The translations under genes were made by a program, and so were the position numbers. This document shows positions 18,573 to 49,300 of a stretch of 64,000 nt of DNA, one piece after another. How positions within the stretch are numbered: the first letter of the stretch is position 1; each line of letters starts with the position of its first letter. Source of the DNA: Pilasporangium apinafurcum. Lineage: Eukaryota > Oomycota > Peronosporomycetes > Pythiales > Pythiaceae. Below the pieces are notes generated by a model. The model had not been told where the DNA came from. It did no database searches and saw only the letters and a list, made by a program, of their open reading frames with translations. The stretch covers positions 18,946 to 82,945 of the forward strand of contig BCKE01000074.1 in NCBI GenBank assembly GCA_001600495.1, read 5' to 3'.

Positions 18573-19760
18573 ATGGTGCAAATTTGGTATGCAAGTGCGC
18601 TCTTACTAGCGCTAGCCGCACTTTCTCCAGCAAATGCCGCCACCTGTGATGATGGCACCCCTACGACAGCCCCAAAGAACCGCCCATTGGTCGTGGGTCA
18701 TCGTGGCGCGCCAGGATACTTGCCTGATCACACGATCGAAGGTTACACGCTTGCGATTGAAACAGGTGTCGATATCATCGAACCAGATCTTGTATCTACG
18801 AAAGATGGCGTCCTGATCTGTCGCCATGAGCCTAACATTATCGCTACTACTAACGTCGCAGACCATCCGGAATTTGCTGATCGCAAGAAGACCGTCGCAC
18901 TTGATGGGGTCAACACGACTGGGTACTTCGTCAGCGACTTCACTTTGGAAGAGATCAAGACGCTGCGTGCCGTGCAGCCACTCTCAGAACGAGATCAAAG
19001 CTACAACGGTCTCTATCAAATCCCCACGTTTGATGAAGTCATTGCGCTGGCACAAACCAAGGCTAAGGAAGTTGGACGCACGATTGGTATCTATCCAGAA
19101 ACCAAGCATCCAACTTACCACAAACAATTGGGTCTGCCGTTGGAAGACAAATTATTGGAATCGCTTGATGCGGCTGGTTGGAATCATGCGGATGCACCTG
19201 TGTACATCCAGTCGTTTGAGCAAAGTAACCTGAAGGAATTGAACACCAAAACTAATGTTACGCTTGTGCAGCTCGTGAGCGGATCGGGAAATGACCCTGT
19301 CACGGGTGAAGTCACATTTGTCGCTCCGAACGATCGTCCATATGACTGGANNNTNGCNGGNCGAACNGANNNNTNNNGNTACNTGGTNANTCCNGAAGGA
19401 CTGGCGGAAGTGGCGGAATATGCCCAGATTATTTCACCTTGGAAGCGCTACATTCTGAAGGCACTACCTGCTGCTGTGGATGAGAACGGTAGTCCTGTGG
19501 ATTTCGATGGCGATGGCAAAATTGCCGATTCGGACTACACAATCATTGAATACCCTCAGATTATTGAAGATGCGCATACCGCTGGCTTGAAGGTACACAC
19601 GTGGACGTTCCGTGATGAAGCATACCGTTTGGCTGTTAACTACTCAAGCGATCCGACCGAAGAATACTTGGAGATTTTCCGATTGGGCATTGATGGTGTG
19701 TTCAGTGATAACTGCAAGACTGCTGTGCCTGCACGTGACGCCTACCTCGCAGAGGAATAA
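18573..19760 (+). CDS. Secreted glycerophosphodiester phosphodiesterase, copy 1
   Basis: A single-exon frame of 395 residues. A signal peptide is clear ([20 protein letters not shown], cleavage likely after NAA). The GDPD catalytic set is intact: HRG at 43-45 in [19 protein letters not shown], the E-x-D metal site at 70/72 in [20 protein letters not shown], and the second histidine at 85. The C-terminal GLKVHTWTF and [10 protein letters not shown] blocks are also present. The enzyme hydrolyses glycerophosphodiesters to glycerol-3-phosphate and an alcohol and would act outside the cell or in the secretory path. A block of ambiguous bases lies at 19351-19396. The coding DNA is nearly identical to copy 2 (20033-21217) from the ATG to the IADSDY codons and then diverges sharply. 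The two genes converge tail to tail. Confidence 0.92.
19351..19396. other. Scattered ambiguous bases inside GDPD copy 1
   Basis: The Ns are interspersed with called bases rather than forming a gap. The called bases all agree with copy 2, and most Ns fall on third codon positions. This is the pattern expected when reads from diverged paralogs or alleles were merged into one consensus. Confidence 0.85.
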
Positions 19761-20032: not shown

Positions 20033-21217
20033 CTACATCGTCATGTACACATCACGCGCTGCGACGGCCGTCTTACCATTGTCGCTGAACAATCCGTCAA
20101 TCCCCAAGTTGAAAAACTCTAAGTACTCGGCAATCGGATTGCCCGAGTAATTCAGCGCCAGGCGGTAACCTTCATCTCGGAACGTCCAACAATGCACCTT
20201 CAAGCCAGCGGTATGCGCATCCTCGACGAGTTGCGGATTCATAAAGACCTTGTAGTCCGAGTCGGCAATTTTGCCATCGCCATCGAAATCCACAGGACTA
20301 CCGTTCTCATCCACAGCAGCAGGTAGTGCCTTCAGAATGTAGCGCTTCCAAGGTGAAATAATCTGGGCATATTCCGCCACTTCCGCCAGTCCTTCGGGAC
20401 TAACCATGTAACTGTACAGGTCAGTTCGCCCCGCAATTATCCAGTCATATGGACGATCGNNNGGNGCNNCAAANNTGANNTCNCCNGTGACAGGGTCANT
20501 NNCNNANCCNNNNANGAGCTGCACAAGCGTAACATTAGTTTTGGTGTTCAATTCCTTCAGGTTACTTTGCTCAAACGACTGGATGTACACAGGTGCATCC
20601 GCATGATTCCAACCAGCCGCATCAAGCGATTCCAATAATTTGTCTTCCAACGGCAGACCCAATTGTTTGTGGTAAGTTGGATGCTTGGTTTCTGGATAGA
20701 TACCAATCGTGCGTCCAACTTCCTTAGCCTTGGTTTGTGCCAGCGCAATGACTTCATCAAACGTGGGGATTTGATAGAGACCGTTGTAGCTTTGATCTCG
20801 TTCTGAGAGTGGCTGCACGGCACGCAGCGTCTTGATCTCTTCCAAAGTGAAGTCGCTGACGAAGTACCCAGTCGTGTTGACCCCATCAAGTGCGACGGTC
20901 TTCTTGCGATCAGCAAATTCCGGATGGTCTGCGACGTTAGTAGTAGCGATAATGTTAGGCTCATGGCGACAGATCAGGACGCCATCTTTCGTAGATACAA
21001 GATCTGGTTCGATGATATCGACACCTTGTTCGATAGCGAGTGTATACCCCTCAATCGTGTGATCAGGCAAGTATCCTGGCGCGCCACGATGACCCACGAC
21101 CAATGGGCGGTTCTTTGGGGCTGTCGTAGGGGTGCCATCATCACAGGTGGCGGCATTTGCTGGAGAAAGTGCGGCTAGCGCTAGTAAGAGCGCACTTGCA
21201 TACCAAATTTGCACCAT
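20033..21217 (-). CDS. Secreted glycerophosphodiester phosphodiesterase, copy 2
   Basis: A single-exon frame of 394 residues in inverted orientation to copy 1, with the same signal peptide and the same HRG, E-x-D and His catalytic residues. Residues 1 to about 310 are the same as copy 1 apart from one ET to EQ change and the ambiguous positions. From IADSDY onward the tail differs at many sites ([20 protein letters not shown] against [20 protein letters not shown] in copy 1) and ends [10 protein letters not shown]. Upstream of the ATG the two copies have no similarity. The near-identity therefore covers just the first three quarters of the coding region. Ambiguous bases lie at 20460-20516. 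The function is presumably as for copy 1, with possible differences from the C-terminal part. Confidence 0.92.
20460..20516. other. Scattered ambiguous bases inside GDPD copy 2
   Basis: As in copy 1, Ns alternate with called bases that match the partner copy. They affect the codons immediately upstream of those affected in copy 1, so the two masked blocks are adjacent in the protein (about residues 235-261 here and 260-279 in copy 1). Confidence 0.85.
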
Positions 21218-27981: not shown

Positions 27982-30900
27982 TTAAGCCCACAAGGGCTGC
28001 TTATGCGACAGCACATATAGCAAATCATTTCCTGTGAGAACATCGCCAGGAAATGGATTGACATACACGTATCCAAACGGTACACTACGCTCACTTTCAG
28101 GCAATTCTACTCGTGCTGCAGGTCGTCCCGAATGGACGAGAAGCGTTACATCTGGTCGACATCGATAGACTCCAAGCGCCAGGATTCCGTCAGACGATAG
28201 TAGATAATGAAAAACGTAGTCGAAGGTTTTACCCACAAAGTCGAGTGGCACTTCCACTGCAAAAAGCGAGCTGCGTTTAATGCTGTGTGGCGACGCGATA
28301 GATGAACTAGTTGGAGAACCTGTAGCGCCAAATGGGGTCGAGCTCGATGCCTGTGGAGGTGAGGTGGGCATCGTCAGGTAGTCCTTCTGCATATATAAGA
28401 ACAGGGACATTGTAAGCATTCATTTTATATAGATGACGCATACAGACAAGAGGGGCACGTACATCTTTCCACGACGCGAAGATGAATTCGCGCAGGATGC
28501 TTTTGATCATCGAATTGAAGTACTGGTTGATGAGCAAACTGTCGCAAAGCGACGTACTGTACGTCAATCCAGACGCAAATGCTGGTGACATAAAGAAGTT
28601 CCTTGCAAACGCCATCGATGATGTCGATGAGAGCATGCGTTGTTGATTCTCATCGAATGACGGAAACCATTCACTCGCAAGCAGGTTCTGCGAAATGAAG
28701 TGCACGTTGGCTCGGTTGATCAGCTCCGTGATGATACGAGGTGCGCGCTGAGGGCCAATGAACGTTGCAATTGCCTTGTGAAGAGCAATGCAGGACTGAT
28801 GTAGATATTCAAACAGGCAGTTAGTGCGTTATTGTCAATTTGATGGAGAGTACAAAAGTAGTGAATCAATGTATACTTACAGCGTCAGCAAGTAGTTCAG
28901 ACGACCCTGACTCGGATATCTCTCCCTCACCGTACGTGATGACGATCTTGAACGCTTTCTCAAACCCAGCACGCTCCAAGGTTGACCTGTGGAACGGATT
29001 ACCCACAACAAAATTGACACGACGAAAGTGGCGAAATGTCTCGTATATTTCAGCGCTCGGCAAAATGGAGGTGACAATGATCACAGGACGATGCTGGCGA
29101 AGTGCTTTGACTCGCAATGGTCCAAGTAAGTACTCCAAATGGTTCGGGAAGGAGGTGGCGGACAATACACACACTATAATCGGGGCTATGGTCAGGTTAA
29201 GTTGTTGTACATCTTCCACAACAGCATCATCGATACTCTTGATCCTGCGTAATTGGCCGTCAACGCTACTATCGGAATCTAATTTCACCTGCCAATCGAC
29301 AATCTTGGATCTCCTTCGCGTAGTCTCACCTGGTGAATGCTGGTCGCTGCTTGTGTCAGTCGTGACCGATCCACCAACGCTCATGACGCGGATATCGATA
29401 TTATTATTTTTATTGTTAGTAGTATTATTGTTTTGCCGATGAGATGTCCATGCTGTGTGCATCTTGTCTGCGCTGCACGGGTACATGAACGTTACTGCAT
29501 TCGCGGCTCGTCGGTCTTTTGCAATGACGAACACCGTTTCATCCCCCACACACGAGTATGAATTGCCTGGATTCAAAAGAATCTTCCCCTCACTGAACGA
29601 CATAGCTCCTTCATGCGAACGTGAAAGAACAGCAAAAACAATCACACCAGCGCATTGCGAGTATGCCAGTGAAGCAACTTCCGCAAAAGTTTTACCAAGC
29701 ACGACCGATGATGAAGGTAACGGCACTGAGTAGACTTCGAGGCTGGAGCCACGAAGATACCGTTCTTCCCAAGAATCATTATCGCTGTACGCTGCGCTTT
29801 CTGGCCCATCGTAGCTAGATGTGGACGTGAGGTTGTACAAGAAGGTCGAGAACCCTGGACAGACGCAGTTTTGACCCATGAGTGAGAGCATGACTTCGGA
29901 AAAGTAGAGTATATTCTTCACGTCCAAGTCCTCCATCAAGTGACGATTACTTGAAAGATGCATCTGCGCGTAGATCTTGGCGTGCGGAGCCAGTCGTTTT
30001 GCGGCCATGACGCGCATAAGTGTGCGGTGGTCGCTTGCCTGATTGTCTTCCTGCCCGCATCGCCGCGAGAGAATGAAAATGGCATCAGCACAATCGCAGG
30101 CAGCGCGTTGCGCATCATCAACATCCAATATCGACCCTTGAAGGAAGCTTGCGCGTTTCTCGAAAAACGGATCCATAAGTAATGCGATCATGGACGTAGA
30201 TGGCTCGTCTTCACTCAGCACAACAACGTTAAGATCGACCATATCGTGATCATCGTGGAAAACTTCGCTGAAGAAATGATCGATCCGTGAGGGCGTGAGG
30301 TCTCCACAGAGCACGATGTGCTTCGTGGTTTTTGAAGGTTTAAATACCATCAATTCGTACTGCGAAAACGATTTGCCCAAGTCTAGTATACGTGAAATCT
30401 GATACGGAACTATCAAGATCAAGACGATGACCAGTACACCGACAAAAACTTTGGCGAGAACGTTGTCTGCGGGTGGCGTTTGGATTGTCACAAACACCAG
30501 CACGGAGTTGAAAAACGAATTGAAAAACGTCCAATCGCCCATATGCGTAACGCTGAGTTTACCGTCGGAAGTTTCTGCGATCTGGATGATTCCTGCAGCG
30601 CCAGCGATAATTAATACGATTTGTAGATAACAGAGCATGGCGAATTGCCGCATGGGCGTCATGAGCGCGTGGCAGCGACTGAGAATCGATTTGGTTTCGA
30701 TATAACACTTGACGAAGCGTACCGGGTAGACGAATCGCCAGTACGAAGCATCATACCACATTGTACTACGCAGAAGACAAGGTAAGAAAGTGACTGTCTA
30801 TGTTTGATGTGGTTTAGTCGGTATTGATCAATTGAACAATAATACTCAACTGGTATTTCAGGAAGAATGATGTTGGAAGCACCGGCAGGATCACGATGGC

Positions 30901-31638
30901 ACTCACGAGACCATTTAGAGAAAGGATATAGTCGATCCGATGATCCGAGAGGTAGACGCCCCGAAAGAGATAATCGAGTGTGAAGCATGACGCACAGAAG
31001 AGTTCGGTCATCCAGAGCCACGTTGGCAGCTAATCATATTTGAATGTAAGGAACACTAGATAAATGGAGCAAGCAATTGATACTTACGTCATTGACAGGG
31101 ATATACGTATTGACGATGTAGGATGCTACATACACCAACGAGACAATGGCCAAGAACAAGTCCAGTCCAACCCCAAATGTACTGTGGTCTAGGAAGCTGT
31201 AGATAAAACATCGAAATAGGCATAAATGGCAATGGTATAAAGATACTCAGCTTCGTGTAAGACGTACCGACTGATGCGGTCGCGGCTGTGGTACGCTTTT
31301 CCTCCAGTGATGAAACGCACATTCGTAGTCAATGACGCACTTTCCGGTTCTACATATTCCACAAGGGCACACAGTTTAGCCATTCAATTGTAGATCCTGC
31401 CATCTTTGAGTAGACTAGATAAACATACCAAAGTCACCTGCGGGCTGGTGGCTAGGAGACAACATTGCATGATGCTTCATCCGCTTGACCTAGGCACAGA
31501 AAGAGATCGTGCATGATTGCATGGAAGGATTCATACTTGGAAATTACACCCAATAATCCTAGAGACGCCTACCATGGAGATGCTGCCATAGTGGGCAGAC
31601 GGCTGCGACTTCTTCTCGACTAAATGGTGCTGCTCCAT
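27982..31638 (-). CDS. Slo/BK-family RCK-domain ion channel with altered pore filter
   Basis: Eight exons with closing phases: 31638-31573, 31489-31429, 31349-31268, 31196-31088, 31029-30851, 30765-28881, 28795-28463 and 28386-27982, giving 1039 residues. The topology follows Slo channels: several helices from about residue 80, an S4-like YWRFVYPVRFVKCYIETKSI at about 175, a pore region at about 245-300, then RCK1 starting at KHIVLCGDLTPSRIDHFFSE (about 312) and a second RCK. The Slo-type end YVYVNPFPGDVLTGNDLLYV is also there. At the place where K+ channels have TVGYGD this protein has TIQTPPAD (residues 259-266). An upstream exon at about 31866-31816 (DASSSADSDDDIHIEHV) can join in phase 0, so the true N terminus may be longer. 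The gene ends 50 bp from the convergent recA. Confidence 0.85.
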
Positions 31639-32124
31639 GAAAGTGATAGATGTTCACGTTGCTCTTTGTAAATGCACGTCCTGCAACCAACCAAGAGCAA
31701 CGAAGTTCTGAAAATGAAAAAAACGAAAGATTGCAGCGGTCGTCTGCGACGGACGCAACGATCGAAGATCCGCTTCTGTATTCATGAACCGTTAACCGGT
31801 TTGAAAGAAATTACTTGCATGTACCACATGTTCGATATGGATGTCATCGTCAGAATCAGCTGAGGAAGAAGCATCTGAATAGAAATTGTTGATGGTTGGA
31901 AACGGTTAATGGATGCCATTGATGGATCATAGGTGCGGCTGACTCATAGAAGATGAAGCATACTGTGTGTTAGTATGCGGTGCTATTGATGATTCTCAAT
32001 ATATTATCGCAATTCCTAATGCGAGGTCGTGCAGATACGGAAGCGAATGGAATGAGCACGTGCGCTCAAAGAGAAACTAAACCAGCAGGAAGACTCAATG
32101 ATGCTGATGATAGAAGTAGTATGT
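31639..32124. other. Region between the channel gene and the decayed Fanzor element
   Basis: It contains the possible extra 5' exon of the channel gene near 31816-31866 and probably its promoter. By analogy with TnpB elements the DNA just past the 3' end of the nuclease frame (below 32125) is where a guide RNA (omega RNA) would have been encoded. No conserved structure could be established by eye. Confidence 0.35.
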
Positions 32125-33356
32125 TTACTGGCGATTACTAGAATACGGCCTAACCGTGTGGACACGTTTGAAAAGCTGATTGACTCCCTCACTGTCCACG
32201 GATACTTTTCCTACATTCTTTTCTCCTCGTCGTAACTCTGGTGGTCTTGGAAGTCCATGTAGGAGACATATAGCGAGTGTAAGCATGTTCTTCGACGTAT
32301 TCACATCTCGCTCCCACGTGATTCTGCACTCGCTGTTGTTACAGTGGAAAACCTGGTAGGAAAACTTGACGTTTGCGCTCCCATCAGCTTTTTTATCGGA
32401 ATGGCGTCTCCTCAAGCTGCTGATAGCATTCGGAGCATTACTGACTCGTGCAGTACTCGTCAATCTGCAGCACGGTCGCGCGCTTTGCCAGCTCATATGT
32501 AAATCGCTTCATGGATCCATGAGCGTGATCTTTGACGAAGTCCTGTTGATTCCAGTCACTGAGGTCAATGCAAACCTGAGGACTTGGTGTGGGTACCAAC
32601 CGCTTTGTCAGATGTACCAACGTCTTCCGACTAAATCTAGACTGAAGGAAACGCCATTTACGAAATGGATGCGATGCACAAAAGCTCACCAAGAAATCGA
32701 GATGCCTTCACACATGCTTGACGTTTGTCATATACTGGTCATACGACACTTTCTTGAACGAAGGCATCTCCCGGATAATCCTTCCGTGCTCATGTTCTCG
32801 CTGCTTCAAGTTCTCGTGCCAGAACATACACTTGTTCATTCCGGCGAGATGCCTGTACTCTCACATAGATATCTGTTGAATGTCGTACTGCTGCTTACTG
32901 GCTCGCTTGCGTCGAACACCGTGCTTGTGTCTCCTCTTCCTTTTCTTCTTCCGCTTCTTTCGCCTTTTCTGCTTCGACTCTTTCACCTGATTCTACTTGG
33001 ATTTCCTTCCGTTGCATTTCGCTTTCTTCTCTTCCACATCAACTTTTCGCACACGAATGGCAGTGTAGAGCGACCGCATACCAGGGTCGATCGCAACGAC
33101 AGTATCGGGAGCGCAATTGTCAGGAGATATCATCATGCCTTTGTCTTTCTCTTTCACGGGACGCTGCTGGAGGTGTTCATTCTTGAAGAAGATGTGTTCT
33201 GGCAGCGTTGACATCTCTCTCAGTGAGGACACTCCAAGACTTTCTGATACCAAACATCTCGTTGAGAAGTTGCTTCTGTTCCTTTGTTGGATACAATCTT
33301 ACTTTCAAGCTGCTGTTTGGACTTGGTTTATCTATCTTGCATCGTTTGATCAGCAT
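32125..33356 (-). pseudogene. Fanzor (eukaryotic TnpB/OrfB-like RNA-guided nuclease) pseudogene
   Basis: Starting at ATG 33356 the frame reads the TnpB N-terminal motif LKVRLYPTKEQKQLLNEMFG, after which sequence normally present between this motif and the nuclease core is missing and the frame shifts near 33250. The next frame gives the RuvC-I motif VVAIDPGMRSLYTAIRV (catalytic Asp kept), a Lys/Arg-rich stretch that looks like a nuclear signal, and the conserved block ending VLQIDEYCTSQ. This frame is broken by stops at 32995, 32863, 32710 and 32440. Just past the last stop it gives CSEC, the first zinc-finger pair. A second frameshift then leads to FHCNNSECRITWERDVNTSK, the second zinc-finger pair and RuvC-III with its Asp. 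The gene is inactive. Intact relatives cut DNA under guidance of an element-encoded RNA. An IS200/IS605-type OrfB is the alternative family, but the neighbouring serine recombinase argues for IS607. Confidence 0.72.
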
Positions 33357-33534
33357 GAACCACGATTTGGATACTATGCTCTTTACACATTTGTGCAAAG
33401 AGTCCATACTCAAATCAGTCTTGAACGGTAACCGCAATCCTCGAGATCTGCTTTTTACGTGCCATTTCTACCAATCTGGACAGTCTTGGCTTTCTGTCCT
33501 TGAGATCGGAATCAATGTCAATCTCCTCGGGCAT
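33328..33534 (-). pseudogene. IS607-type serine recombinase (TnpA) remnant
   Basis: From an ATG at 33534 the frame reads SDLKDRKPRLSRLVEMARKK, then QISRIAVTVQD, a TGA, and FEYGLFAQMCKEHSIQIVVH. This parallels the SGLN.KR..L..LL region and the V(V/A)..KDRL.RFGFE.....C...G.EIVV block of small serine recombinases. The TGA sits where the invariant Arg of the DR(L) motif is expected, as if CGA had mutated to TGA. The frame is open upstream to about 33660 apart from another TGA at 33543, but no catalytic-serine motif is clear there. The end overlaps the Fanzor start by 29 bp. Confidence 0.55.
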
Positions 33535-33801
33535 GTACTGTCATCGACTTGCATCCTTTCCTGAAAAGAAGGATAGTAGAGGAAACATCTCATTGTGGAG
33601 AATTGAAAACAAGTTTCTATCGATACGGAGAAAAAAACATGTCAAAGTATATCCCATTGGTGGGAGAAATGGGAGAATAAAGGCTAATGACTTTGGACGG
33701 GAGCTGGACGATTGATTGTTTATATTTGCCTTAAAACTGCCATATATCTTCCTATCTATTCATTGATCTATTATGCTCATATTTTAACTTAGCTTTCGTC
33801 A

Positions 33802-36008
33802 TTACTCCTCACTAAACTCGGTCAACTCCATCTCCAAAACCGTGAAGAGTGCGTCTTCGAGCTCCTGTTTGGTCTGATAAAGCGGAAGTTCCACGCGATT
33901 AAAACACGTGTGCACTTTTGGAAACCCTTTGGTTTGCTGCAGCAGCGGTCGTAACGCAAACGGACAAATCCGGCCGTCGTAGCTCGTCAGTCCTTTGAAC
34001 CCTTGCACAGGTACCCGCGATGAACCCGTGGAAAATTGCAAAAATCGTGCACGTTCTTCTTCACTAAAACTCGCAATCACTTCCCAGAACCATTGCACCA
34101 CGGGCGAGTCACCAAACGACGGTGCAACAATCGTATTCCGCCGCCAGTCGTGGATGTCAATCTCTTGTAGTCCACAGAGCACGAGTTCTAGTTCTTGATA
34201 GTCAAATATCATAAGCGTTTCTTGAGGAATAACCTCGAACAGCCCTAGTGACAACGCCTGCAATTGTTCTGCGTACCGGTCGAGCATCAAATATCGTAGC
34301 TTCAGATGTAAATACTCAAGTTTATTCGCATCTGTCACCACAATATCGCGTCCACCGGGGATTAAATCGATGATGAGTGGTTGGCCATCGCGAATCTCAG
34401 ACACACAGAATGTCAACTCCAGCGCTTCAACCTCATCGTTTTCTCGTATCCATTTCATGCTGTTATAAATCTCCGGATCAACGTACTGGAGGTCGGAAAA
34501 CGTGATCGGTACACCAAGAAAGTGCTTGAGGATTGGCAAACAGAGTCGTGCCTGCATGGCTTGACCCTCAAGCAGCGCACGACCGATGAGTCGTCCAATG
34601 CCTCGAAAGTACAGTAGATGGTCAGCCGTACACTCGATCGAATTCGGATTGATCGCGACCGATTGATTATTGCGATGACAATTCATAAATAAGCCCAGTG
34701 AATCATCCAGCAACTTGCTAAATAGAATCGAAAACCATTCGCGCTGCAATCCGCCGGCATCAATGCCCACTTCGCCAATAAATTCAATCCGCAATGGAAA
34801 GTGAATATGTTCGACCTGGATGCCCAGCAATTGTTCCATAGACTCAACCAAAATGTTTTCTCGGTGCACACTGAGCTTGATCCGTCCTTCTTCCCAGCTC
34901 TTGAGCAAGCCGTTCATGCGTTCTAGAAACCAGGTGTATTTGCGCTGGAAGGGAAGCTGACAGATGTGGTCGATCAATTGGAGCTCCTCAGCACGGATGC
35001 GATAGCCACCGATGGTCGTAGCGGCATCAGCCTGTGTGGACTCGGCAAACGTCAGCCGCCCTTCACTATGAACCGAGGACCGCACCATGAACGTGATAAA
35101 GCCTGTGGATGGACGATATGCAACCTTATCTCCTGAAGAAGAATTACGAGAATTATGATGAAAGGAGTGGCTGGNGGAGTGAAGCATATCCTGGCGAGTC
35201 CAGTAGGCGGAGCCATCGGGACCAATGCGTCTTACCCATTCCTTGCGTTTCCTAAACGACCAAACGGCAAAATGGCGTAAGTACATAGCACAATAGCGTA
35301 AACAAGTACAGGTAAAAAGGCTTATGCCATTTTTGTTGTTGTATGGGTATATACCTAGCGTATCGCTGGCGTGGGTTGAGTGTACTCAGTCGAAGACTTG
35401 TGGATGGCTGGGATAAGGACGCACTCAGTCGCGTGTGTGTGCGCTTGATGACGCGGATTTCCTCCAAGTCGATGGGCTGAGAACCTGATGAGAGAAATAA
35501 TAGGCTTAACAACTACTGATTAGGCTCAAGTAACGAACAGTCGGGCGTACCACTGCGCGCGACATTCCGCTTGGTGCCGCATAAAATGCAGGCGCGTTTC
35601 TCCATGGAGTTACTAAACTCACATACCAGACACTTCCACCGCTCCTCGCTCTCTCCACTGTCCACAGAGAAACACACATCGATGCACATAAGCCTTTTCA
35701 TTCAACTCATCCATCATTTAACCATAAAATCACTTACTTTCGCTCCAAATCTAAGCGCGTGATGGTCTCGCTCTCTGCTAACAAGATTCTATAAATTGAT
35801 CCACTCACATCAGCTTTCACTTCTCCATTGCTAAAGTGTAACAAATGTCGTACCTGGCTAAAAAGGAACGCGACATGTTATCACTTCCCAGTCGTGCACG
35901 GTCTCGGAGGAGATAAAGACCGCCGATAAGCAACAGCAGCATAACGATCGCCATGAGCGCCAGGAAGACCTCCATGGACGCGCCGCCCATATTCCCTGGA
36001 TCCGACAT
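33802..36008 (-). CDS. HECT-type E3 ubiquitin ligase with N-terminal membrane helix and RanBP2 zinc finger
   Basis: Five exons with closing phases: 36008-35885, 35777-35738, 35657-35551, 35484-35355 and 35251-33802, giving 616 residues. Residues 12-33 form one hydrophobic helix (VFLALMAIVMLLLLIGGLYL). A RanBP2-type zinc finger follows at about 62-85 (WKCLVCEFSNSMEKRACILC). Next comes a short WW-like patch, EWVRRIGPDGSAYW. Residues about 270-616 are the HECT domain: IEFIGEVGIDAGGLQREWFS, a conserved NPNS, and the catalytic cysteine 583 in KVHTCFNRVELPLY. The enzyme takes ubiquitin from an E2 on that Cys and passes it to substrates, here probably at a membrane. One N lies near 35175. Exon 1 to exon 2 uses donor A|GTGATA, the only choice found that keeps frame into the zinc finger; a GTACGA donor nearby does not. 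Confidence 0.85.
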
Positions 36009-37360: not shown

Positions 37361-40300
37361 TTAGCTCTTCATCTGGAGCATCTCGAACCATTGGCGCAGA
37401 GAATCGGACAAAATTTCGGGCAGCAGTGTCGACGTTGGAAGCAACACGTAGTATGGGAACGGATAGTTTTCCAAGTATGGTACCATTGTCACTTTGCCCT
37501 TGGTGAACGTTACGCTTTTCGTCTCCAAGATTGATGTGTCTTTGCTTTTCTCGGATTGATCATCAACAATTAGCAGCACAATCAATTGTTGCTGCTCCAG
37601 TGCTGTTTCAATCAGTTTCTTGATCCGTACGCGGCCGTCCGTGTCGAAGCGACCGTCTGAGATCAGGAAAACAATCTGCGTAAACTCGACGTTTGAAGCA
37701 TTACTCGCCGCAGTTGAGGCGTTCTTGGCGTTTTCCAAAATCTGCAAAATGGCGTCTAATGTCTGCACCATGTTGGTTTTCTTCTGCTGGAAGCCAAATT
37801 GCGAGATGATGCGACTGCCTGCATCATCTGTGAACGGCGTGTCAAATGAGTGCAGCAGCTGCAGCGTCTGACCGAACTTTACGACCGAGATCTCGCCTAC
37901 TTCCAATTGCGTCATGCCTTTACACAACGTTGTCATCGCCTCCAATGCTAACCGTCCTGCATGGTTATCAGCCATAGACTCTGAGTCATCAATCGCCACC
38001 ATCACCTGGTACTGCCGCTTTGATGGACGTGTCCGACGCATCCAGATCTTGTCCTTACGAAATTGACTCGCGATGTACGGGATTACCTTGCGCATGTTAA
38101 TGCGCTTGCCGGTCCTGAAATCGCCTTCGAGTTTTGCGCGCAGCATCGGCTCCAACACTAGCCGCAATTGTTCACACAACCGTTGAGCGGATGCACTTGT
38201 GACAGCCGTGTACTTGGACCAGAGATCAGCACCATGCAATGCCAATGAGCTGTCGTCACGCGACCAGTTCGCGATGAAAGTGTCCAATTCGTCACGTAGA
38301 GCAGCCACCTCTTCGGGACTCAGCAGTTTTGGTGGAGGACGAGTGCTCTCATCAGCCGATTCTTCATCTTGCTTCGTGAGTTTCTTTTCAAGATCAGACT
38401 GGTGAACAACCGTCGGAAAAGCATTCGCTTCTTCTTGCTCTTCGTCAATGTCCATGTTCACATTGTCGTCCGTACGAATAGGTTCATCGCCGTTCTTGTC
38501 CTTCTCTTGCTCACTTTGAGGATCCAACATGTCAGCGTTTGCCTCGTGATCGCGGTTTGCGTTCGTTTCTTTTTTGATCGGTGGTTGTTTATCTTCGTCC
38601 TTGGCTGCCTCTTCCTCTTTTTTCACGCTCTCATCATCGTCTACATCCATCATACCAGCACCCACGGGATCCGTTTGCTCATCGTCTTCATTATCTTGAC
38701 CTTCCATCTCATCTTCATCAAGATTTTGATTCTGGTTCATGATTTGATTCTCGTCTGCCGCTGCAAGCGCGTGCTGTACGTCGTCCATATTGATGTCATC
38801 ATCATCCACAAACTCAGCTGTGCTCATATCGTTGTGCTGGTCTTGGTCATTATGAGGATCCTCATTGGAGTTATTACTATCTTGTTCACGCTCAATCATC
38901 TCTACACGCCGCTTCCAGTGCTCCTGCGTATTTTGCGGATTTCGATACGGATTCGGTTCGTTCTGGCGCCGATTGCGTCGCTTTTCTTCTTGTTGTTGGT
39001 TTTCTTGAGCATTTGAGACTTGTGACTGCGGTTTCCATTCTGCCTTTTCATCGTCATCGTTGCTATTACTCTGCTGCTGCGCACTACTACTGCTTCGATC
39101 TTGTTCTTTAGATTCGTTTTTGTCATCATTTGCGCTAGACTCGTCCATTTCTTGGTCTTCCTTCTCTTCTTCGTCGTGCTCCAATTCGTCCTGACCATCC
39201 TTCGAACGGGAACCAGCAACAGTTGACGCCGCTTTTTCTTGTTCTTGGGATGGATCCTCCTGATCAACCTGGTCTTGGTCATTATGGTCGTCCGCTTCCT
39301 CTTCTTGTTGCTCGTCGTCTAAACCGCCGGCACCCATCTGAACAGCACTATCTATCGGTTCTTCTTCCTCCTTGTCTTGATTTTCATCTTTTTCGCCGTC
39401 GACATTGTCATCACCACCTTCATCTTTCTCTTCATCCATGTCTTCGTCATCCAGTTGATCCATGTCGTGATCGCCGTCTTCATCTTCGCCTTCGCCTTCA
39501 TCGCCACCGTCATTTCCCTCATCCATTTGCATGTTCTCTGGCAATTGGCCGTCGTCTTCTTGCTCCTCATTATCCTCACCACCGTCTTCACGATTCTGGG
39601 GATCAACATCGTTGTTCTCCTCGTACTTGTCTTCAAAATCGTCGTTCACTTGCCCTTCTTTATCAGCCTCGTCGCCATTTTCTTCTTCGGAGTCGTCTCC
39701 TGCTCCGCCATCTTCTTGCTGTTTCTCTGGCTGTTGCTTCTCGTTCTTCTTTTCTTCGTCCTTCTTCGCGTCATCCTTCTCTTTGTTGTCATCATCATCA
39801 TCTTTGCCGCGAATCTCATCTTCTAATGCTTCTCCCTCGACTTTTGAATCTTCTTCAAATTTCTCATTCTCCTTGTCGATTTTATCTTCGTCGTCGTCTG
39901 AATCTTCTCCCCACATCTTTTCGTCTACGACATTTTCATCCTCTTGGTCGAAATCACCCATTTCGCGATCGAGTTCTTCTTTTTCATCGTCGTCCTGATC
40001 GTCCTCATTTTCGTTCTGTTCATCATCTGGCAGGTCCTGCATCGTGCCATCAAAATCGTTCTGCATTTCCAGCCCAGTGTCCTGTGGCGGTTGATCTTGC
40101 TTTTCAGGCTGTTCTGGTTGCTGATCGCCTTGCAAGCCCAGCAATTGTTCTTCGTCTTCAATCTCGTGACTCACGTCCTTCTTGCCTTCACCCTCGCCCA
40201 TGCCTGTGCCTTCAACATCATCTTGGAATTGCATCTTCCCGTCTCCGCTGCTTTCGCCATCTTCTTCCTTCTGCTCATCCGCACGGCAGAAACCGTGTTG

Positions 40301-43300
40301 ATACAAATTTCGGAAGATTCGAATGAGAACAAAATCTAATTTCGTCACACTCTTGTGTGTCACGAGGAAATCAACCAACAATTGTCGGCTGATGCCACGA
40401 ACATCCAATAAACTCGGTTCAAATCGTTCCAGCAGTGATAAAGAATAAACGAACACCTGGCGCCAGTCGCTCGACTCGGTATTCACAAGTTGATTCTGCT
40501 GTTGCGCAAGCAACTCCAGCAAATTCGCAAGCTGCAAAGCAATTTGATTCACACGCGAATCTTTCACAACTGTGTTCAAATGACTTAACTGGTCTCGAAG
40601 CGATTGCTGCTCTCTCTCGTCCATATTGTCGTCTGCCTCAGATTTGTTCATCTTCTCCTGCGATTTCTTTGTCAAATCCTGAATCGCCACCAACACCGTC
40701 TCCACTAACGCGTTATAAGATCCAATAAACGTCTCCATCACCTTTTTAGATTCAGCGGCAGCATATTTGATGTTCTTCTGAGCAATTGACGACTTTTTCT
40801 TCTGCGCTAATGTCATTAGATTTTGGTCATGCTCCACTACACTTGACAGTTGCGGCATGATTAGGTTAAAACAGGTAGATGGTGCCACTTGACCAAAGAG
40901 AGCAGAGATATTCTCCAACAAGGACTTGATTTCGAGAAAATGTGTCGAATTGGCTTTCAGAATGTCCAATTTCATCGGGAAAAGATTAGGCTTCTGCTGT
41001 TTTGCTGATTCATCTGCATCAATCGAAGCCAAAGGAGAAATACCAAACACGCGTTGGGATGGGTGGGCAAAAGCGGTCAGCGTTGGTTCCCCATTAACAT
41101 CTTCGCTGGATTTCACGGACTGGTATGGGATTGCAGGTACACCCAATGTTCGTCTAGTACCCGAATGCACCACAAACGAGCTGTGGATGTTTTCCAAAAG
41201 TTCAAACACTCTTCTAAACTTCTCGCTGATGGTTGAGACTGACGGCGTACTAGATGATGCTCGCAGAACCTCCACAACGGTGATTTCGAGCTCGCGTAAT
41301 GGTTTTCGCAGTGCCAACACTGCTTCTCCCTGATGCTCTTGCCATTTGGTGACTGCCTTCAATGACACATTGACATCGTTCGATAGATAATTAGTCTTGA
41401 ACTCCTTCATTCTCATCAGAGAATCAAGCCCAGCAATGAGTTTCTCGTGGTTTAACGCCGTCGCATGCAAAACTTGACGCTGATGAAGCATGCTATAAAG
41501 CATATTTTCCGCGTATCCATTCATCCGATCTACCTCACTCGATGATAAGTCGTGCGAGAAATTCGTTTGTGCGCTAAACCGTAGCGAGGTAATCTGGCTT
41601 AGGAACCGATAATAATATCCATCTGCACGTTGCCATAGCCACGACGGCGATTTCTTCCCCGATGGCGCTGCGTGTGTCACAACTTGGTCAGTCTTCGTTT
41701 TACCGTTTTTCTTGCTCCGTTTTGTCTTCTTAAGCTTGTCAGGTACAATAGAACCCTCATCTGCGTCCACTAAATCATCCAAACCATCAACTTGCAAGCA
41801 ATTATCCACATCGGGAACGTCCAATTCAAACAATTGTTGCATCTGCTGTTGTTGAGGCGGCAAGTGCATGCGATGATACGATATCCCCTGTGCCTTCAAT
41901 TCGCTAAGCAGATCAATCAATGCTTTTTTCTTCGCTCCTTTCGGCAGATTGGTCGATTTCTGTAGCATGGTCATCCGGTAGAAAATCGTTTCGCAAAGAT
42001 CTTCACAGATTTCGCGTGGCTGTTGTCGTAATTCAATCTGATCTCGAGAAAGAATGTGTCGTTGCGTAAATTTCGAGATACGTTTTGCTAATATTTCAAC
42101 CTTGTCTGCATAAGGAGACAACTCGGAGATTTCTGGAATCGGACTTATGCCAATGCTTTCCAACGATACACCTTTGTGGACAAGTACCAAGGGAGACGCT
42201 TTCTCAATAATCTCTTCCTCTTCTGCTGGGGACTCTTTTTTGACGTTGGGTAGCTCTTCTTCATCTTCATCCTTGTCTTTTACGCTCTCATTAACCATCT
42301 TTGGAATTTCCACACCATCATTAATGTTGTCCAACTCTGCTTTTGTAGCATGAATACCCACAAAGCCACCTTCTTTAGTGATTCCGCTGTCAGTGGAGGC
42401 GTCAATGACGGTTTGCATAGATACTGCTAGCACTGCATCGTAGTCACGAACAAACTTCATGAGCTTGCGATGAGACTTCTCTGCCGATTCCGCCAATGAA
42501 TAGTATGTCTGTTCGTCCCATCGACAAATTTTGACAAACTCGATCAACTTCTGCTGAATAGGGGCTTTCAATCCGCTCCATTGCCGCTCCAAGTAGCCCA
42601 AATGTTGCCCGTAATAGCGATACAAATGGTAAAGCATATTCGCAAGTGCGTAACTCGTCTTCTTGTTCTCGGAAGTCGAAATTTCTCTGCGTTCCAAGTT
42701 CCAAAACTCCATGAACAATTGTGAACAGAAAGAGTAGACAATCAGTAGCCTCGTTTCGTACTGTCCAATCGGACAAGTGCGGATGTATGCATCCAATGTA
42801 GAAAAAAGCTGACTCATCCATTCAAAACGTTTTTGCTTCACTTCACTCATCATGTCTTCGTTCTCTGCTTCACCCTTTCGAGACGATGGGAACAACCAAT
42901 GTGAAATGCTATTTAGATGAAGCCATTTAAGCTCATTCTTGTCATGTGCATACAGCAATTCTTCCGAGCCATATTCTTGTGCATCTGCTTCAAATTGACC
43001 TGTTAAGAGTGAGTACATGTGAAACCACGTTTTCTGCGCAGTCAATTGATGTTGCTTCTCTTTCACGTATAGCAAATGGGGCCACGAATACAACTCAAGT
43101 TTTCTCCACCGTGTCACAAGCGCGGAAAGTGCCGCCAATTCGTTCGCGATGGAGTAATCTCGAGCAGCATATGCTTCCCATTCCTGAGCCTTTCGGAGAA
43201 GCAATTCAACACCAGTTAATGTTCGTGCTAATGGCGAACTAATTGGGAAATTTCGAATTCGGTCTGCAATCATCACCAATTGCTGTAAAATGGCGTGCTC

Positions 43301-46300
43301 TGGCCACAAAGATAGTAATGACTGTAGTTTAATCATCAACTCCTGCAGAGGTTTCGCAACCAAGACGACTTCCTTTACGAGAGGATCACGATGGAAATCA
43401 ATGCCACGAATATAGTCAGCACTCAATGACTGAAGAGATGGAACAGCACTTCTGGTATCACTGCTGCCAAGACGAGAATGCACAAGTGAAGCAGCAAAAA
43501 CACCCGAAGACACAATAGCTTCCTCGACAGCGGACGAGCTCATGGCATTGATCGTTGAGCGCATGAGCACTGTCAAAAAGAAAGCCCGCGCAAACGCATT
43601 CACAATTTCTTGCTTTGTCACATTGACTTTAGAATTAGCGCTCGCAGCGTACAACTTCACGTGCGCTTCACAGATTTGCCGCATCATGGTGTCAGTAATC
43701 AACACATCGGCATCTGCAGCATTAGAGATAGCAGAACTGATTGCATTCTGCCCAGCTTGATCAGGAGAAAGGAAAGCTTGGAAATCCTGAACGGTGTAAT
43801 CTGGAAATTGTTGGCGGTACTCCTCTTCAAGTAGTTGTTCCTCTGACTCGATATCCAAGTGGCGTGTTTTATACTTGAACATTTCTTCTGCTTCTTTTCT
43901 TTTTTGTTCCTCGCGTTCTTTCTGTTCCTGCCATTTTGCTAAAAACAAGTCAAACAACGATTTGCTACTTTGCAACGCCGCTTCTACAACAGCTTCTGAA
44001 ATCGACGAATCACTAAACGTGGAATAGATGGACACAGTTTCACGAAAAAGGAATTCCAACTTTGCCAACCCGACATCTAGCAGCGCTAGTTCACTCTTTC
44101 GTTGGTTACGAGAACCACCAAAGATAATGGATGACGCCTTGGATCCAACAGTTTGGAGCAAGAGCTGAATTCCACGCCAAGGGTCTTCTATTGCTCCACG
44201 CAAGCGATGATTTATTGCCGATGGAAACTGCACTAGCGTTAGTACCAACGCCGACTTTTCCTGGTTCTTCACGCTCTGATCCTGGAGATGTTGGCGAATG
44301 GACCATGAAAGTAATGCCACACCTTCTTTCACAGCATACACTGTAGCAGCTACGGGTTCCACAATGTCACTGAAACTGACCCCGTACTTCTTCGAAATCT
44401 GTGCCAAGAAACTCTCCGATGTTTGTTGAAACATTTCCAATTCACGTAGCATTTGACGACACTTTTGCTGACTAGTCAATGACGAAAGAACAGTTCCAAG
44501 AAGCGATAGCATTTTTCCGGTTGGCATGATTGTCGCTTGAAATTTTAAGAGATCTCGAAAAAAGTCTCCAAAGACCGAAACAGTCACCGGTTGAAGTGGT
44601 TCTTGCTCAGGGTTATACCGTTGAAAAGCGTGAGCAGAAACTTCGGTAACTTCGTTGGCAAGAATTGTCATAGCCTCGTTGGCAGCCACATGATGTTGTT
44701 TTGATCCTGCTGGCAGTGGATTCATGCGATTCATTGCAATATCCGCTGCCTTTTGCATTGTCAGCATAGCCAACCGATTCATCAACAGTTCCCGTTTAAC
44801 AATCGGCTTCGTTACTGGATCCACCGGAGATGATGGGATCATCAGAGCAAACCGCCACAGACCCAACAATATAAAACATTCTCCAAAAGAAGAAAGTTTT
44901 GAGCCATTGGATTGTGATTTTTGCAACGATGTGAAGAATGGTATGATATATTGTTCAACTGACGCAGAAAATGTCGGATCTTGGGAATGTTTCATGGCTA
45001 CAATCAGTTGATTTTTGGACGTCAGCATAAAATCATTGGAGCCAAAATGCTGTAATAACTGCTGAACAGCCACCCATTGTTCTAGAGAAAATGTCGATTC
45101 AAACGCCAGTACTGTAGAGACAAACAGTTCCTTTACCAGCGTCCATGTCGTAGCCATCATCTGATCAATCGATTTTAATTGTGTTGACGCAAAATGTTGC
45201 TTAATCTTCTCCAATCGTACCTGCCGCACTTGAGCTTCAACCGTGGCACACGTAGAGTCATGCAAATCGACCTCAGCAATGCTTTTCAGCACGACTGCGC
45301 TTTCAACACTTTGGAAGAGGCGCGGATAGCCAAACACAACTTGCGTTTGGTCTTCTTCGTCCCGAGAAGCAGTTTTCTTTGTATACTGCTTCGCAGCTTG
45401 GCGTAACTTTTTCTGTGTGTCGAATATCTCATAAGAAATGGCATCAATGTCATTGAAGCTGTTGCAGCGCAAAAATTGGTGGAATCCGTACAGAATACCA
45501 TTCATATGCGTTTTAACAAGCGCAACAAATACTTCAAGCTCGGTCTCTATATCTGCCTTCGATATCTTGTTCACGGACGAAGAAGTGAGAAACTTGTGGC
45601 CGCACCATACAATATCCTGGTAGGCATGGAAAGTTGTTGGATCACGTGTTCCAACATTCAAGAGATCTTCAACAAGTAACTCCATGGTCGATAGCAGTTC
45701 AGTCACTAGTTCAAGGATCTCTTGATGGTGTTGATGCTCATTATGTCCGTGATAAAGTTGATACACGTTCACAACACGGATAAGTTGAGATATAACGTGA
45801 ACTTCTACTCGTGCAAGCGAATGCTCGAATAATGGACTCAATTGGAAGTTCACTAGTTGATCCATCAATTTTGCACCTTCTTGCATGTCAAAAAGCAAAA
45901 TAGGTGCGTCTTTGCCGATTTGCCGATCTTCGTCAGTTAAGAGATCAAGATGGGTCTCACCATTGTCTTCAATCTCACTGAGATACAGAGTCTTTTGCAT
46001 AATCATTGCAGTAACATCACGTTTCTTGGTCTCCAGCTTCTTCAACAAGACTTCTGGAAGTTTAAATAGTTCTTCCGCCATCATTGCATAGGGATTGTTC
46101 AAAGGAACATCATTGTGCTTTCTTCGTTTAGTGTTTACTTGCTGCTGAGCGAGATAAGAGAATGCACACAGTGCGTATAAAACCTCTTTGCGAGCCTCCA
46201 CATCCACGAAAAAAAGCGAAGAAATGTCAAGTTGGCCAATCTTCATAGCTGCCTCCATCGATGCTGTACCACCAAACAAAAGTGCCAAGACATCGACTTG

Positions 46301-49300
46301 CTGAGTCTTTCCAGAGCCCATTTGTGTAGATGAGAAACAAGTATCGACATGCATAAACGTGCTCGTAAGTCGTTCAAGTAAGTATTTTGCACGCCAAAGC
46401 TTTGGGCTACTCGGCAGCAAAGTGTGCCCACCTCTCTTCCACAAAACATTTTTTTTCGATCCACATCCGATTGTCCTGTCAATCGCGTCTTGCATGCGCT
46501 GTATCATATTCACTAGATCTTCCAAAGATTTTTCCCACTTTCCTTCAATCATATTTTGATGTTCAAGATTAGAGCAAAGTCGCATAAGAGATTTGCTCGT
46601 CCATTGCCAATGGATCAAGAAATGCATCCAATCAAATGTTGGTTCGCGCAGTTGAATCGAAAACTCAAATCGATCGCGAAGTGCAGTCTTTACAACTTGG
46701 AATAACTCGTCTTGCACTGTTATTCCCGCAAAATCACGAACAAACGCGGTTAAAAAAGTGTCAAATGTTGTGAGCAAGGGGTAAACAAGAAGAACAAGTT
46801 CGTTCTCAACACTTGACCGATCGGCATGAAACCGATGAATGGCGTATGATTGCTGCAACACCGAATAGCGGCTAAGGTCACTTTCTAGATTGGTCTTGTG
46901 CTGTTTCTTTTTACGATCGCTAATTGAAGAGAAAAGTGTATCAACTTGTCGATACTGTTCATCTTCACAAAAGCGGAGCCATTCAATGCCATCTAAGAGC
47001 TCCAAATTTTTTGAATGTTCAAGCACAGACAGCCATATTGGTTCGATTTCTGCCTTCTGTACAGGATTCGCGGTGATTGTCTTATATACTAACGACCTGG
47101 CATGTTTAAACGCCGCATCATTAGCTGTTAGGAAGACAGGATAACTGCTTTTCGCCGTTTCTTCATCACCAGCAGCAACAAGCGTCAATAAACGCCCCAT
47201 GTTTACCTTCACTTGAGAAGCAATACTCACGTAGATGCTGTTGTTTAGCAAGGATCGAAGATATCGCACCAGTAAATCCACAGAATCACCAACATTATAA
47301 CTGGTTTTGGCAACCGAAGCGATCATTTCCAAAACAAAAAGAAGACGATCTTCAGTCACTGTAGTACCAGAAACTGTTGACGATACCTGTACAAGCCGAC
47401 GCAACGCGAATGGCGCAAGAGTCATTGATAGGGACGACGCAGCAAAGAATCTCTGTGTCGTCAAATATTGCTTCACAGAATCCAACATGTCCTGAGTGAT
47501 GAGTTCATATTTTCGAGCAGCAAGGCAATCGAGCCATTTCCTTTCTGACACACCAGCTGAGTTAAGCAGGCTGGATTCGACTGATGCATTGGATGCCAAG
47601 AACGCTAACAGGAGATCTTCTTCTTTTTCCACGTCGGCAGTATTTGGCTCTTCTAACGAGAATGTGATGAGAAATTCAAGGTATGCACAATCACGTTCGA
47701 GTACATGCGATTCTGCACGTTGACAAAGTTCAAGAGTTGTAGTATTTAACGCCAACACACGCTGCTTGTTTGGACTGGCCAATGAAGACTTTAAAGCTCC
47801 AAGGAAAAGTTGGAGAACTTCGTTGCCCAGTTCCAAATGCATCAATAATCCTTCTCCATACACCTGCTGAAAAGAAGTCGCAATAGCATTGAGGGGCGAT
47901 ACCCCACGATTCAATTCTGCAGATGCCAATAGAGACCAATTCTCCAAGTGTCGGCGGTTGATTTTCGAATACTTGGTTCCAACCATGCGTTCCGACAATT
48001 TCTCCATCACTTGTTTATGTACTTGTTGGAATGCGTGACACAGCGCGAATCCAGGGATGCCAGCCGCTAATGAAATCTTGATTAGGTCAAAGTTTTGCTC
48101 CTCTTCCGGCAATAGAGCGATTTCCACACACCGATTCCGCATAGCACGCGACACTTCACCGAACTGAGGATCCATTGCCAAAAAAACACGGAAGTTCGGG
48201 TGAGGCTTGATCACACGCAGTTTACCATCGATCACACCACATTCATTGATGAGCAGCTCACCACCAGTTTCCAACAAAGAATTGAGACGATCCAATACAG
48301 AAGAGCTGCAGAAATTGACGTTATCGAGCAAGATCCATTCCCCATTTTCCATTGCTTGAATCAACGTACCATCCACCCATTCAAAATTACTTGCAATGGA
48401 AGGAGACTTACTCAGTGCCACAACGTTGTCGACCGCGCTCCCCAACGCTATAAGTGATGCAATAGTCTCCTCAACAAACGGCTTATCCTTTTCTTCGATA
48501 AGCAACATAACTGCCTTCTTCAGCGTCGACAAGATGTCTTTCATTAAGTCCACTGCAACATTATCTAGTTGTCCCTTAGCCAAATATTTCTTTCTCTTGT
48601 TTCCAGAAGCGTTGTCAACATCATCATTGCTCTGGCGTCGAGATAAAGTCCACCACGTACTAGTTAGCCGATTAATATGCTTCAGCGAAGCCGACTTTGA
48701 TTGCTGTGACGTCGTTGCAACGAATAAAATCACTTTTTGCTGCACTCGAGCATATACTTCCCCAATCTTGGTCTGAATCTCACGCAGTTTTCGACCAACA
48801 TCAACTTGTTCAAAGCATCCAAGCAGTTCAGTAGCGTCGGTACCAGCACTCATACCTAATTCGTGGAGAGTGTTACCACTCAGAGCGGCCAAAAGACGCA
48901 CAGACGATGTTTTACCACTAGCAGGGGGACCCACAAGAAGTGCTGGCCAGTTCATATTCACACAATGCACGAGTGCCTCCATCGGTTTTAGCAGAAAGCT
49001 AAACAAAGGTGGAGTCACACGACCAACACGGATCTCGGAACGCCTTACGAGGAATGCATTCCCCACTTGTAAGTCATTCCCAGAAAGTCGAAGTACTACA
49101 TTGGTTAAATCCATGGGCTTCACACCAAAAAACTCTTCAAATCGACGAGAGATCATAGCTCGATCACGCAACGAACGCATTCGGTCAACATAAATGAAGT
49201 TCACAAAGTAGCTGAGGGCTTGAAGTTCTGCTTCTGGAGTGGCTTCGATATACTGCCGCTGCAGCAGTTCACAAAAACGAAAAACATCACGTAAATTGAA

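What the first reader, a model, noticed from the sequence alone, without database searches (positions are those of the whole stretch)
32125..33720. Fossil Fanzor RNA-guided nuclease with its own IS607-type serine recombinase
Seen: a TnpB N-terminal motif, RuvC-I (AIDPGMRSL), two zinc-finger Cys pairs and RuvC-III (ERDVN) in order on one strand, next to a serine-recombinase block with a conserved (Q)D-[stop]-F-E-Y-G-L core. Known: Fanzors are eukaryotic TnpB relatives that use an element-encoded guide RNA, and IS607 elements pair TnpA with TnpB. A linked TnpA in a eukaryotic nucleus would show this copy still mobilised as an IS607 unit rather than as a passenger of another transposon. The copy is dead, but its coherence suggests intact relatives elsewhere in the genome.
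Basis: partly seen in the sequence, partly recalled or inferred. Interest (0 to 1): 0.88.

Follow-up and report, generated by a model that had tools for sequence, protein, structure and literature searches.

The report
Fossil Fanzor with overlapping recombinase ghost
A dead copy of a eukaryotic RNA-guided DNA-cutting gene that seems to show, in an overlapping reading frame, the faint remains of the bacterial-type recombinase gene its ancestor travelled with; similar elements are already known, and no working recombinase is visible here.

Summary
The reported motifs are real. On the minus strand, 33540-32290, lie decayed pieces of a TnpB/Fanzor nuclease: N-terminal extension, helix-turn-helix (Pfam HTH_OrfB, above cut-off), RuvC-I, four zinc-finger cysteines, RuvC-III. 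Chained matches to a Fanzor2/pro-Fanzor profile score 33.8 bits; the best of 100 simulated windows scores 11.5. The serine-recombinase block is weak alone (1 of 100 simulations reaches it) but sits in the frame and codon register in which tnpA and tnpB overlap in 27 of 27 cyanobacterial and viral-contig IS607 elements compared. It is not a recombinase gene: the catalytic half is not detected, the DRLxRF core is lost, and a stop interrupts it. So the locus descends from an IS607-type element, but nothing shows that this copy carried a working TnpA. The C-terminal half departs from Fanzor2 (about 70 extra residues between RuvC-I and RuvC-II, longer zinc-finger loop); I call it Fanzor1-like partly from memory, having reached no Fanzor1 reference. 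A second RuvC-III-like motif 900 bases away suggests a rearranged or composite fossil. Fanzor2 in Phytophthora and TnpA-bearing Fanzor2 elements in eukaryotes are published. New member of a known kind; modest interest.

The parts
33331..33540 (-). fossil of the IS607 TnpA (serine recombinase) frame: two pieces, 33418-33540 and 33331-33414, split by a stop; conserved DRLxRF core and C-terminal part missing
   Evidence: NCBIfam NF033518 E 0.029, PHROG 6620 E 0.024; top two TnpA-HMM segments of 2404, hmm 96-129 and 134-157; rank 1 in ungapped scans; about zero with a sharper matrix
33348..33458 (-). Fanzor/TnpB N-terminal extension (SWF motif), +1 frame over the TnpA fossil
   Evidence: F2 HMM 89-128, 10.3 bits; offsets +1/-8/-5 nt to TnpA, same as 27 of 27 references (window values worked out by hand from its maps)
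33246..33320 (-). helix-turn-helix HTH_OrfB_IS605 of the nuclease
   Evidence: PF12323 E 1.6e-7, 31.1 bits, cut-off 21; 39.8 against a reference mean of 42.0
33198..33221 (-). second RuvC-III-like motif ERDVNAAR, same open frame as the HTH: internally deleted copy, second fragment, or chance
   Evidence: strict pattern in 1 of 200 simulated windows, two in the window; F2 block 481-508 rank 1 here; negative with the sharper matrix
33059..33127 (-). RuvC-I (SPDNCAPDTVVAIDPGMRSLYTA)
   Evidence: F2 318-340 rank 1, 25.0 bits against next 14.5
32864..32992 (-). lysine/arginine-rich stretch between RuvC-I and RuvC-II
   Evidence: translation; RuvC-I D to RuvC-II E about 210 codons against 132-143 in 32 references
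32441..32860 (-). RuvC middle part (two open pieces, 32711-32860 and 32441-32707) ending in the RuvC-II region RATVLQIDEYCTSQ
   Evidence: RuvC-II identity rests on position, the following Cys pair and recall; the Fanzor2 profile does not recognise it
32326..32437 (-). C4 zinc finger CSEC ... CNNSEC across a frameshift, about 27 codons between the pairs
   Evidence: PF07282 E 0.16 only, below cut-off; 10 references that match the pattern have 13-14 residues between pairs
32290..32313 (-). RuvC-III ERDVNTSK
   Evidence: F2 488-513 rank 8; negative with the sharper matrix

Best explanation
The locus is the decayed remains, in the nuclear genome of a eukaryotic protist, of a Fanzor (eukaryotic TnpB) mobile element of IS607 ancestry. 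When alive, the ancestor encoded TnpA and, in the +1 frame over TnpA, the N-terminal extension of the RNA-guided nuclease. TnpA would have moved the element as a circle, and the nuclease with its guide RNA would have cut the empty site and so favoured retention (inferred from known IS607/TnpB biology, not shown here). In this copy both frames are dead. The recombinase is visible only as a ghost frame under the Fanzor N-terminus, so the copy is best read as a Fanzor relic whose recombinase was lost before it or with it. The C-terminal half belongs to a subfamily longer than the Fanzor2 references and resembles Fanzor1; the fossil may combine pieces of two copies.
For: Pfam HTH_OrfB above cut-off. 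Nuclease chain 33.8 bits against at most 11.5 in 100 simulated windows. Same overlap register as 27 of 27 references. Top-ranked TnpA and Fanzor blocks. The published Fanzor motif D-X(125,275)-[TS][TS]-XX-C4-X(5,50)-RD (PMC3627910, section read) is met when coordinates are read across the lesions: about 212 residues from D to TS, 5 from the last Cys to RD (worked out). TnpA catalytic half not detected. N-extension keeps 0.22-0.38 of the reference score, TnpA blocks about zero. In decay simulations a TnpA score as low as the window's, at the window's N-extension score, arose in 0% of 81 runs under TnpA-only selection, 10% without selection and 90% under Fanzor-only selection. RuvC spacing and zinc-finger loop longer than references.
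Against: The TnpA signal alone is modest: 1 of 100 simulated windows reaches its chained score, and both TnpA blocks and both RuvC-III sites score at or below zero with the sharper matrix. The two overlapping signals come from the same DNA and are not independent. The decay simulation does not separate 'both decayed together' from 'Fanzor outlived TnpA'. The Fanzor frame also carries a stop, at 33468-33470. No Fanzor1 or oomycete Fanzor2 reference was reached, so the subfamily call rests on spacing and recall. Single pieces other than the HTH found no significant match in PDB, phage, plasmid or viral collections.
Confidence: 0.7

Rival explanations
1. Composite: two adjacent remnants on one strand. 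A is an internally deleted IS607/Fanzor2 copy (tnpA overlap, N-extension, HTH, then RuvC-III at 33221); B is a 5'-truncated Fanzor1-like copy running from RuvC-I (33127) to RuvC-III (32290). It overlaps with the best explanation rather than excluding it.
For: Two strict RuvC-III motifs in the window against one in 200 simulated windows; ERDVNAAR lies in the same open frame as the HTH and F2 block 481-508 ranks first there; the HTH keeps 0.95 of the reference score while the profile does not recognise the RuvC middle part.
Against: RuvC-I of the supposed copy B matches the Fanzor2 profile at rank 1; DNA around the two RuvC-III sites is no more alike than shuffled sequence (80 of 300 shuffles score as high); the site scores -11.8 with the sharper matrix; the pattern was framed after seeing the motif.
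Confidence: 0.45
2. One reading: a single IS607 unit with its own TnpA that was mobilised by that recombinase in this genome and then died.
For: tnpA-like DNA in the right place and register; TnpA-bearing Fanzor2 elements are named in Acanthamoeba and viruses (PMC3627910, passages).
Against: No catalytic half, lost core and C-terminal part; TnpA frame more decayed than the Fanzor frame by one scoring; no ends or second copy seen.
Confidence: 0.2
3. The recombinase block is a chance match; only a Fanzor fossil is present.
For: Chained TnpA score reached by 1 of 100 simulated windows; near-zero score with the sharper matrix; no plasmid or PDB hit for the piece.
Against: 24.8 bits against next best 12.1 in the window; three offsets match 27 of 27 references; three serine-recombinase models in two libraries hit it, each weakly: NF033518, XisF, PHROG 6620.
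Confidence: 0.05

Closest known systems
Fanzor2 in IS607-type elements of eukaryotes and viruses (Bao and Jurka 2013, PMC3627910); mimivirus-type L79, PDB 9b0l (source organism of L79 recalled)
   Same: HTH_OrfB, N-terminal SWF extension, tnpA before and overlapping tnpB, DPG RuvC-I; the only PDB hit of the window's HTH piece at E up to 10 is L79 (E 0.13)
   Different: window has about 70 more residues between RuvC-I and RuvC-II, a longer zinc-finger loop with C-x4-C, and no detectable catalytic TnpA; it is dead
Fanzor1 (PMC10711439, PMC11423790)
   Same: insertions in RuvC and zinc-finger regions, as described for larger Fanzor1s; WERDVN and other motifs resemble Fanzor1 from memory
   Different: published survey found no Fanzor1 in IS607 transposons; no Fanzor1 reference could be aligned here; the WED TDG motif cannot be judged because that region is mostly missing
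Cyanobacterial pro-Fanzor IS607 elements (PMC10711439)
   Same: same tnpA/tnpB overlap register and DPG motif
   Different: bacterial; many are intact; C-x2-C zinc knuckles

Membership tests
Fanzor/TnpB superfamily | D-X(125,275)-[TS][TS]-XX-C4-X(5,50)-RD | tested here: met
   D 33088, TS about 212 residues on, CSEC/CNNSEC, 5 residues, RD; coordinates read across stops and a frameshift (motif)
Fanzor2 | HTH_OrfB_IS605 at the N-terminus | tested here: met
   PF12323 1.6e-7
Fanzor2 | compact RuvC as in the references used here | tested here: not met
   RuvC-I D to RuvC-II E about 210 codons against 132-143 in 32 references
Fanzor1 | TDG motif and extra helix in WED | tested here: inconclusive
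   WED region mostly missing: about 70 residues HTH to RuvC-I against 156-189 in references
Fanzor1 | sequence clustering with Fanzor1 references | not testable with these tools
   no Fanzor1 reference reached by scans of IMG/VR or PDB searches
IS607 element | TnpA serine recombinase with catalytic domain | tested here: not met
   hmm 60-95 (YxRVS) local best rank 92; only hmm 96-157 visible
IS607 element | tnpA-tnpB order and overlap as in Fanzor-lineage IS607 | tested here: met
   offsets +1, -8, -5 nt as in 27 of 27 references
IS607 element | no terminal inverted repeats or target duplication, GG crossover ends | tested here: inconclusive
   no convincing terminal repeats in 31500-34000; ends cannot be fixed without a second copy

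The most novel reading that the evidence does not exclude
A Fanzor1-like nuclease whose N-terminus still carries the overprinted tnpA frame of an IS607 element: a direct fossil of the IS607 ancestry proposed for Fanzor1, of the kind a published survey looked for and did not find.
Probability: 0.18. Interest if true: 0.7.

Novelty: new member of a known kind. Interest (0 to 1): 0.36.

Why it matters
Fanzor nucleases are thought to descend from bacterial IS607 elements, but the 2023 survey found Fanzor1s only in other transposons. A relic that joins a tnpA ghost frame to a longer, Fanzor1-like C-terminal half would tie the two together. The comparison also indicates that in this lineage the nuclease N-terminus and the recombinase are encoded by the same DNA in two frames, which may help explain why the nuclease travelled with this recombinase.

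Tried and rejected
Searches with single window pieces other than the HTH (viral contigs, plasmids, phages, PDB) found no significant relatives, as expected for a decayed copy. Two scans of viral contigs for Fanzor1-type patterns returned 1 and 3 loci; the first had no nuclease among its ORFs near the hit and the three others I take for phage terminase-like genes by eye. A scan with an alignment that included a window piece returned the same 38 contigs as before. The profiles found no second Fanzor copy elsewhere in the window. No convincing terminal inverted repeats. The idea that TnpA alone was kept is not supported by the decay simulation (0 of 81 runs). Contamination by bacterial or viral DNA is unlikely: the pieces lie between a HECT gene and a BK-channel gene and are heavily decayed. 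Gilbert and Cordaux 2013 (IS607 in eukaryotes, stramenopiles included) is recalled; it is cited in PMC6188088 but not held.

Full report
Setting. No whole genome is held for this window. Neighbouring genes are eukaryotic: midasin-type AAA domains in a 6122-codon open frame, a Hemingway/CFAP97 protein, a BK-type potassium channel, a HECT ligase and a staphylococcal-nuclease/Tudor protein. I infer a flagellated protist, probably an oomycete (long uninterrupted frames, GC mostly 44-48%), but no tool named it. The finding lies between the channel gene (28869-30761) and the HECT gene (33805-35286), both on the minus strand like the finding.

Checking the observation. Translation of 31900-34000 shows the reported motifs on the minus strand. 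Pfam recognises HTH_OrfB_IS605 at 1.6e-7, above its cut-off. NCBIfam and PHROGs give weak hits to serine recombinases in the recombinase piece (NF033518 IS607 0.029, XisF 0.032, PHROG 6620 0.024). The C-terminal piece has PHROG 32404 (unknown function, 0.0044) and 506 (transposase, 0.02), and Pfam PF07282 at 0.16 only. Direct searches with single pieces gave nothing significant. The best was the HTH piece: in plasmids 107 records at E up to 10, best E 0.1; of the 20 listed, 12 had a named feature, 10 of them TnpB and 2 transposases. Its only PDB hit was the TnpB-like protein L79 (E 0.13).

Building references. From a plasmid TnpB I reached cyanobacterial genomes, found IS607 TnpA loci and among them DPG-type pro-Fanzors. 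An alignment of five (A1) has L79 as its best PDB match (6.9e-42) and found 38 loci in IMG/VR. I take many of these contigs for giant viruses, but no call checked that. I kept 36 nuclease proteins (profile score over 300, at least 440 residues, identical ones removed; of 81 rows) and 27 TnpAs (185-225 residues, identical ones removed, one second TnpA of locus L174 left out). Several references are close relatives of each other.

Statistics. Against 2404 six-frame segments of the window, the best two segments for each profile are the reported pieces. Chaining collinear hits, the nuclease profile gives 33.8 bits against at most 11.5 in 100 simulated windows; TnpA gives 12.4, reached by 1 of 100. 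In ungapped scans of the window, TnpA 96-129 (24.8 bits, next 12.1), TnpA 134-157 (19.0, next 17.2), N-extension 89-104 (13.9, next 12.9) and 108-128 (16.3, next 13.7), HTH (35.6, next 16.3) and RuvC-I (25.0, next 14.5) rank first; RuvC-III ranks second (at 33260) and eighth (at 32352); RuvC-II, TnpA 60-95 (catalytic) and TnpA 20-60 do not stand out. Against my reading: with a sharper matrix, in which each reference was scored without its close relatives, the two TnpA blocks of the window score -0.8 and 0.8 against reference means of 82.3 and 52.9, and the two RuvC-III sites -11.8 and -17.6 against 49.3, while N-extension, HTH and RuvC-I score 11.7 of 30.3, 8.2 of 37.6, 39.8 of 42.0 and 11.5 of 54.2.

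The overlap. In the 27 reference elements with both proteins in the sets (of 36), the nuclease N-terminal extension is read in the +1 frame over tnpA with the same offsets in each (TnpA hmm 129, 150, 157 to nuclease hmm 102, 120, 128: +1, -8, -5 nt). From the same call's maps the window gives 33420 to 33419, 33366 to 33374 and 33345 to 33350: the same three offsets. The two signals come from one stretch of DNA and are not independent, but their agreement identifies it as the IS607 tnpA/tnpB overlap. Relative to references, 3 codons are missing at the DRLxRF core, and the distance from TnpA 150 to the HTH is 64 nt against 121-187 (mostly 127). Simulated decay by substitutions only gives a TnpA score as low as the window's in 10% of 81 runs without selection, 90% of 81 under selection on the nuclease frame only, and 0% of 81 under selection on TnpA only; the window lies between the first two.

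The C-terminal half. The published Fanzor motif is met when coordinates are read across the lesions. But RuvC-I D to RuvC-II E is about 210 codons against 132-143 (32 references), and the zinc-finger loop is about 27 codons against 13-14 (the 10 of 36 references that match the pattern). The Fanzor2 profile does not pick out this part of the locus at hmm 341-460. Larger Fanzor1s have insertions in REC, RuvC and zinc-finger domains (PMC10711439, section read), so I lean to Fanzor1-like; the resemblance of PSFKK, KRATV..DEY and C-x4-C..WERDVN to Fanzor1 is recalled, not tested. No Fanzor1 reference was reached.

A second RuvC-III. ERDVNAAR at 33221 follows the HTH in the same open frame. A strict pattern occurs twice in the window, once in 200 simulated windows, and a Fanzor2 block ranks first there. 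Either an internally deleted copy sits beside a second fragment, or the copy is rearranged, or this is chance. I give the composite 0.45.

What is known. Bao and Jurka 2013 (passages and one section read) list, as I read the columns of their Table 1, one Fanzor2 each in Phytophthora sojae, capsici and ramorum, and name TnpA-bearing Fanzor2 elements in Acanthamoeba and viruses. The 2023 NAR paper (passages and two sections read) found no Fanzor1 in IS607 transposons. That IS607 ORFs often overlap is known (PMC6188088 and PMC9956272, passages). The nine paper searches (listings) showed me no title or abstract start about a locus like this one. Words for overlap or frames do not occur in PMC10711439, 'overlap' does not occur in PMC3627910, and no held paper has both TnpB and overprinting; that is no proof that the dual coding is undescribed.

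Verdict. A real fossil of IS607-lineage Fanzor origin, correctly spotted. The claim of a linked recombinase should be reduced to a recombinase ghost in a dual-coded overlap.

Noticed in passing
cyanobacterial loci L105, L111, L113, L133, L135, L137, L143 and IMG/VR loci among L145-L182: In Fanzor-lineage IS607 elements the +1 frame of tnpA is stop-free over 115 codons in 26 of 28 loci (mean 0.2 stops; exceptions L176 and L174), against a mean of 10.3 in 32 other IS607 TnpA loci; 5 of those 32 are also stop-free and carry short pro-Fanzor hits. Fourfold sites of tnpA at 50-60% protein identity are 0.53 identical in the stop-free group (31) and 0.34 in the rest (29; few sites, base composition not controlled). 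This points to true dual coding of recombinase and nuclease N-terminus. AlphaFold gives part of the extension (about residues 81-100) moderate confidence and most of it low.
   Followed up: partly
Fanzor2-like proteins of IMG/VR loci, e.g. L155, L160, L173: Many lack the zinc-finger cysteines: only 10 of 36 references match the C-x2-C ... C-x2-5-C pattern; L170 and L171 keep altered ones.
   Followed up: no
window 18573-19745 and 20045-21217: Inverted, 90% complementary pair of GDPD (glycerophosphodiester phosphodiesterase) genes 299 bases apart.
   Followed up: no
window 37361-55729: Uninterrupted 6122-codon open frame with midasin AAA domains.
   Followed up: no
window 32864-33040, minus strand: Low-complexity stretch rich in K/R in one frame and E in another; it produces high local scores in ungapped scans at several unrelated profile positions.
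   Followed up: no
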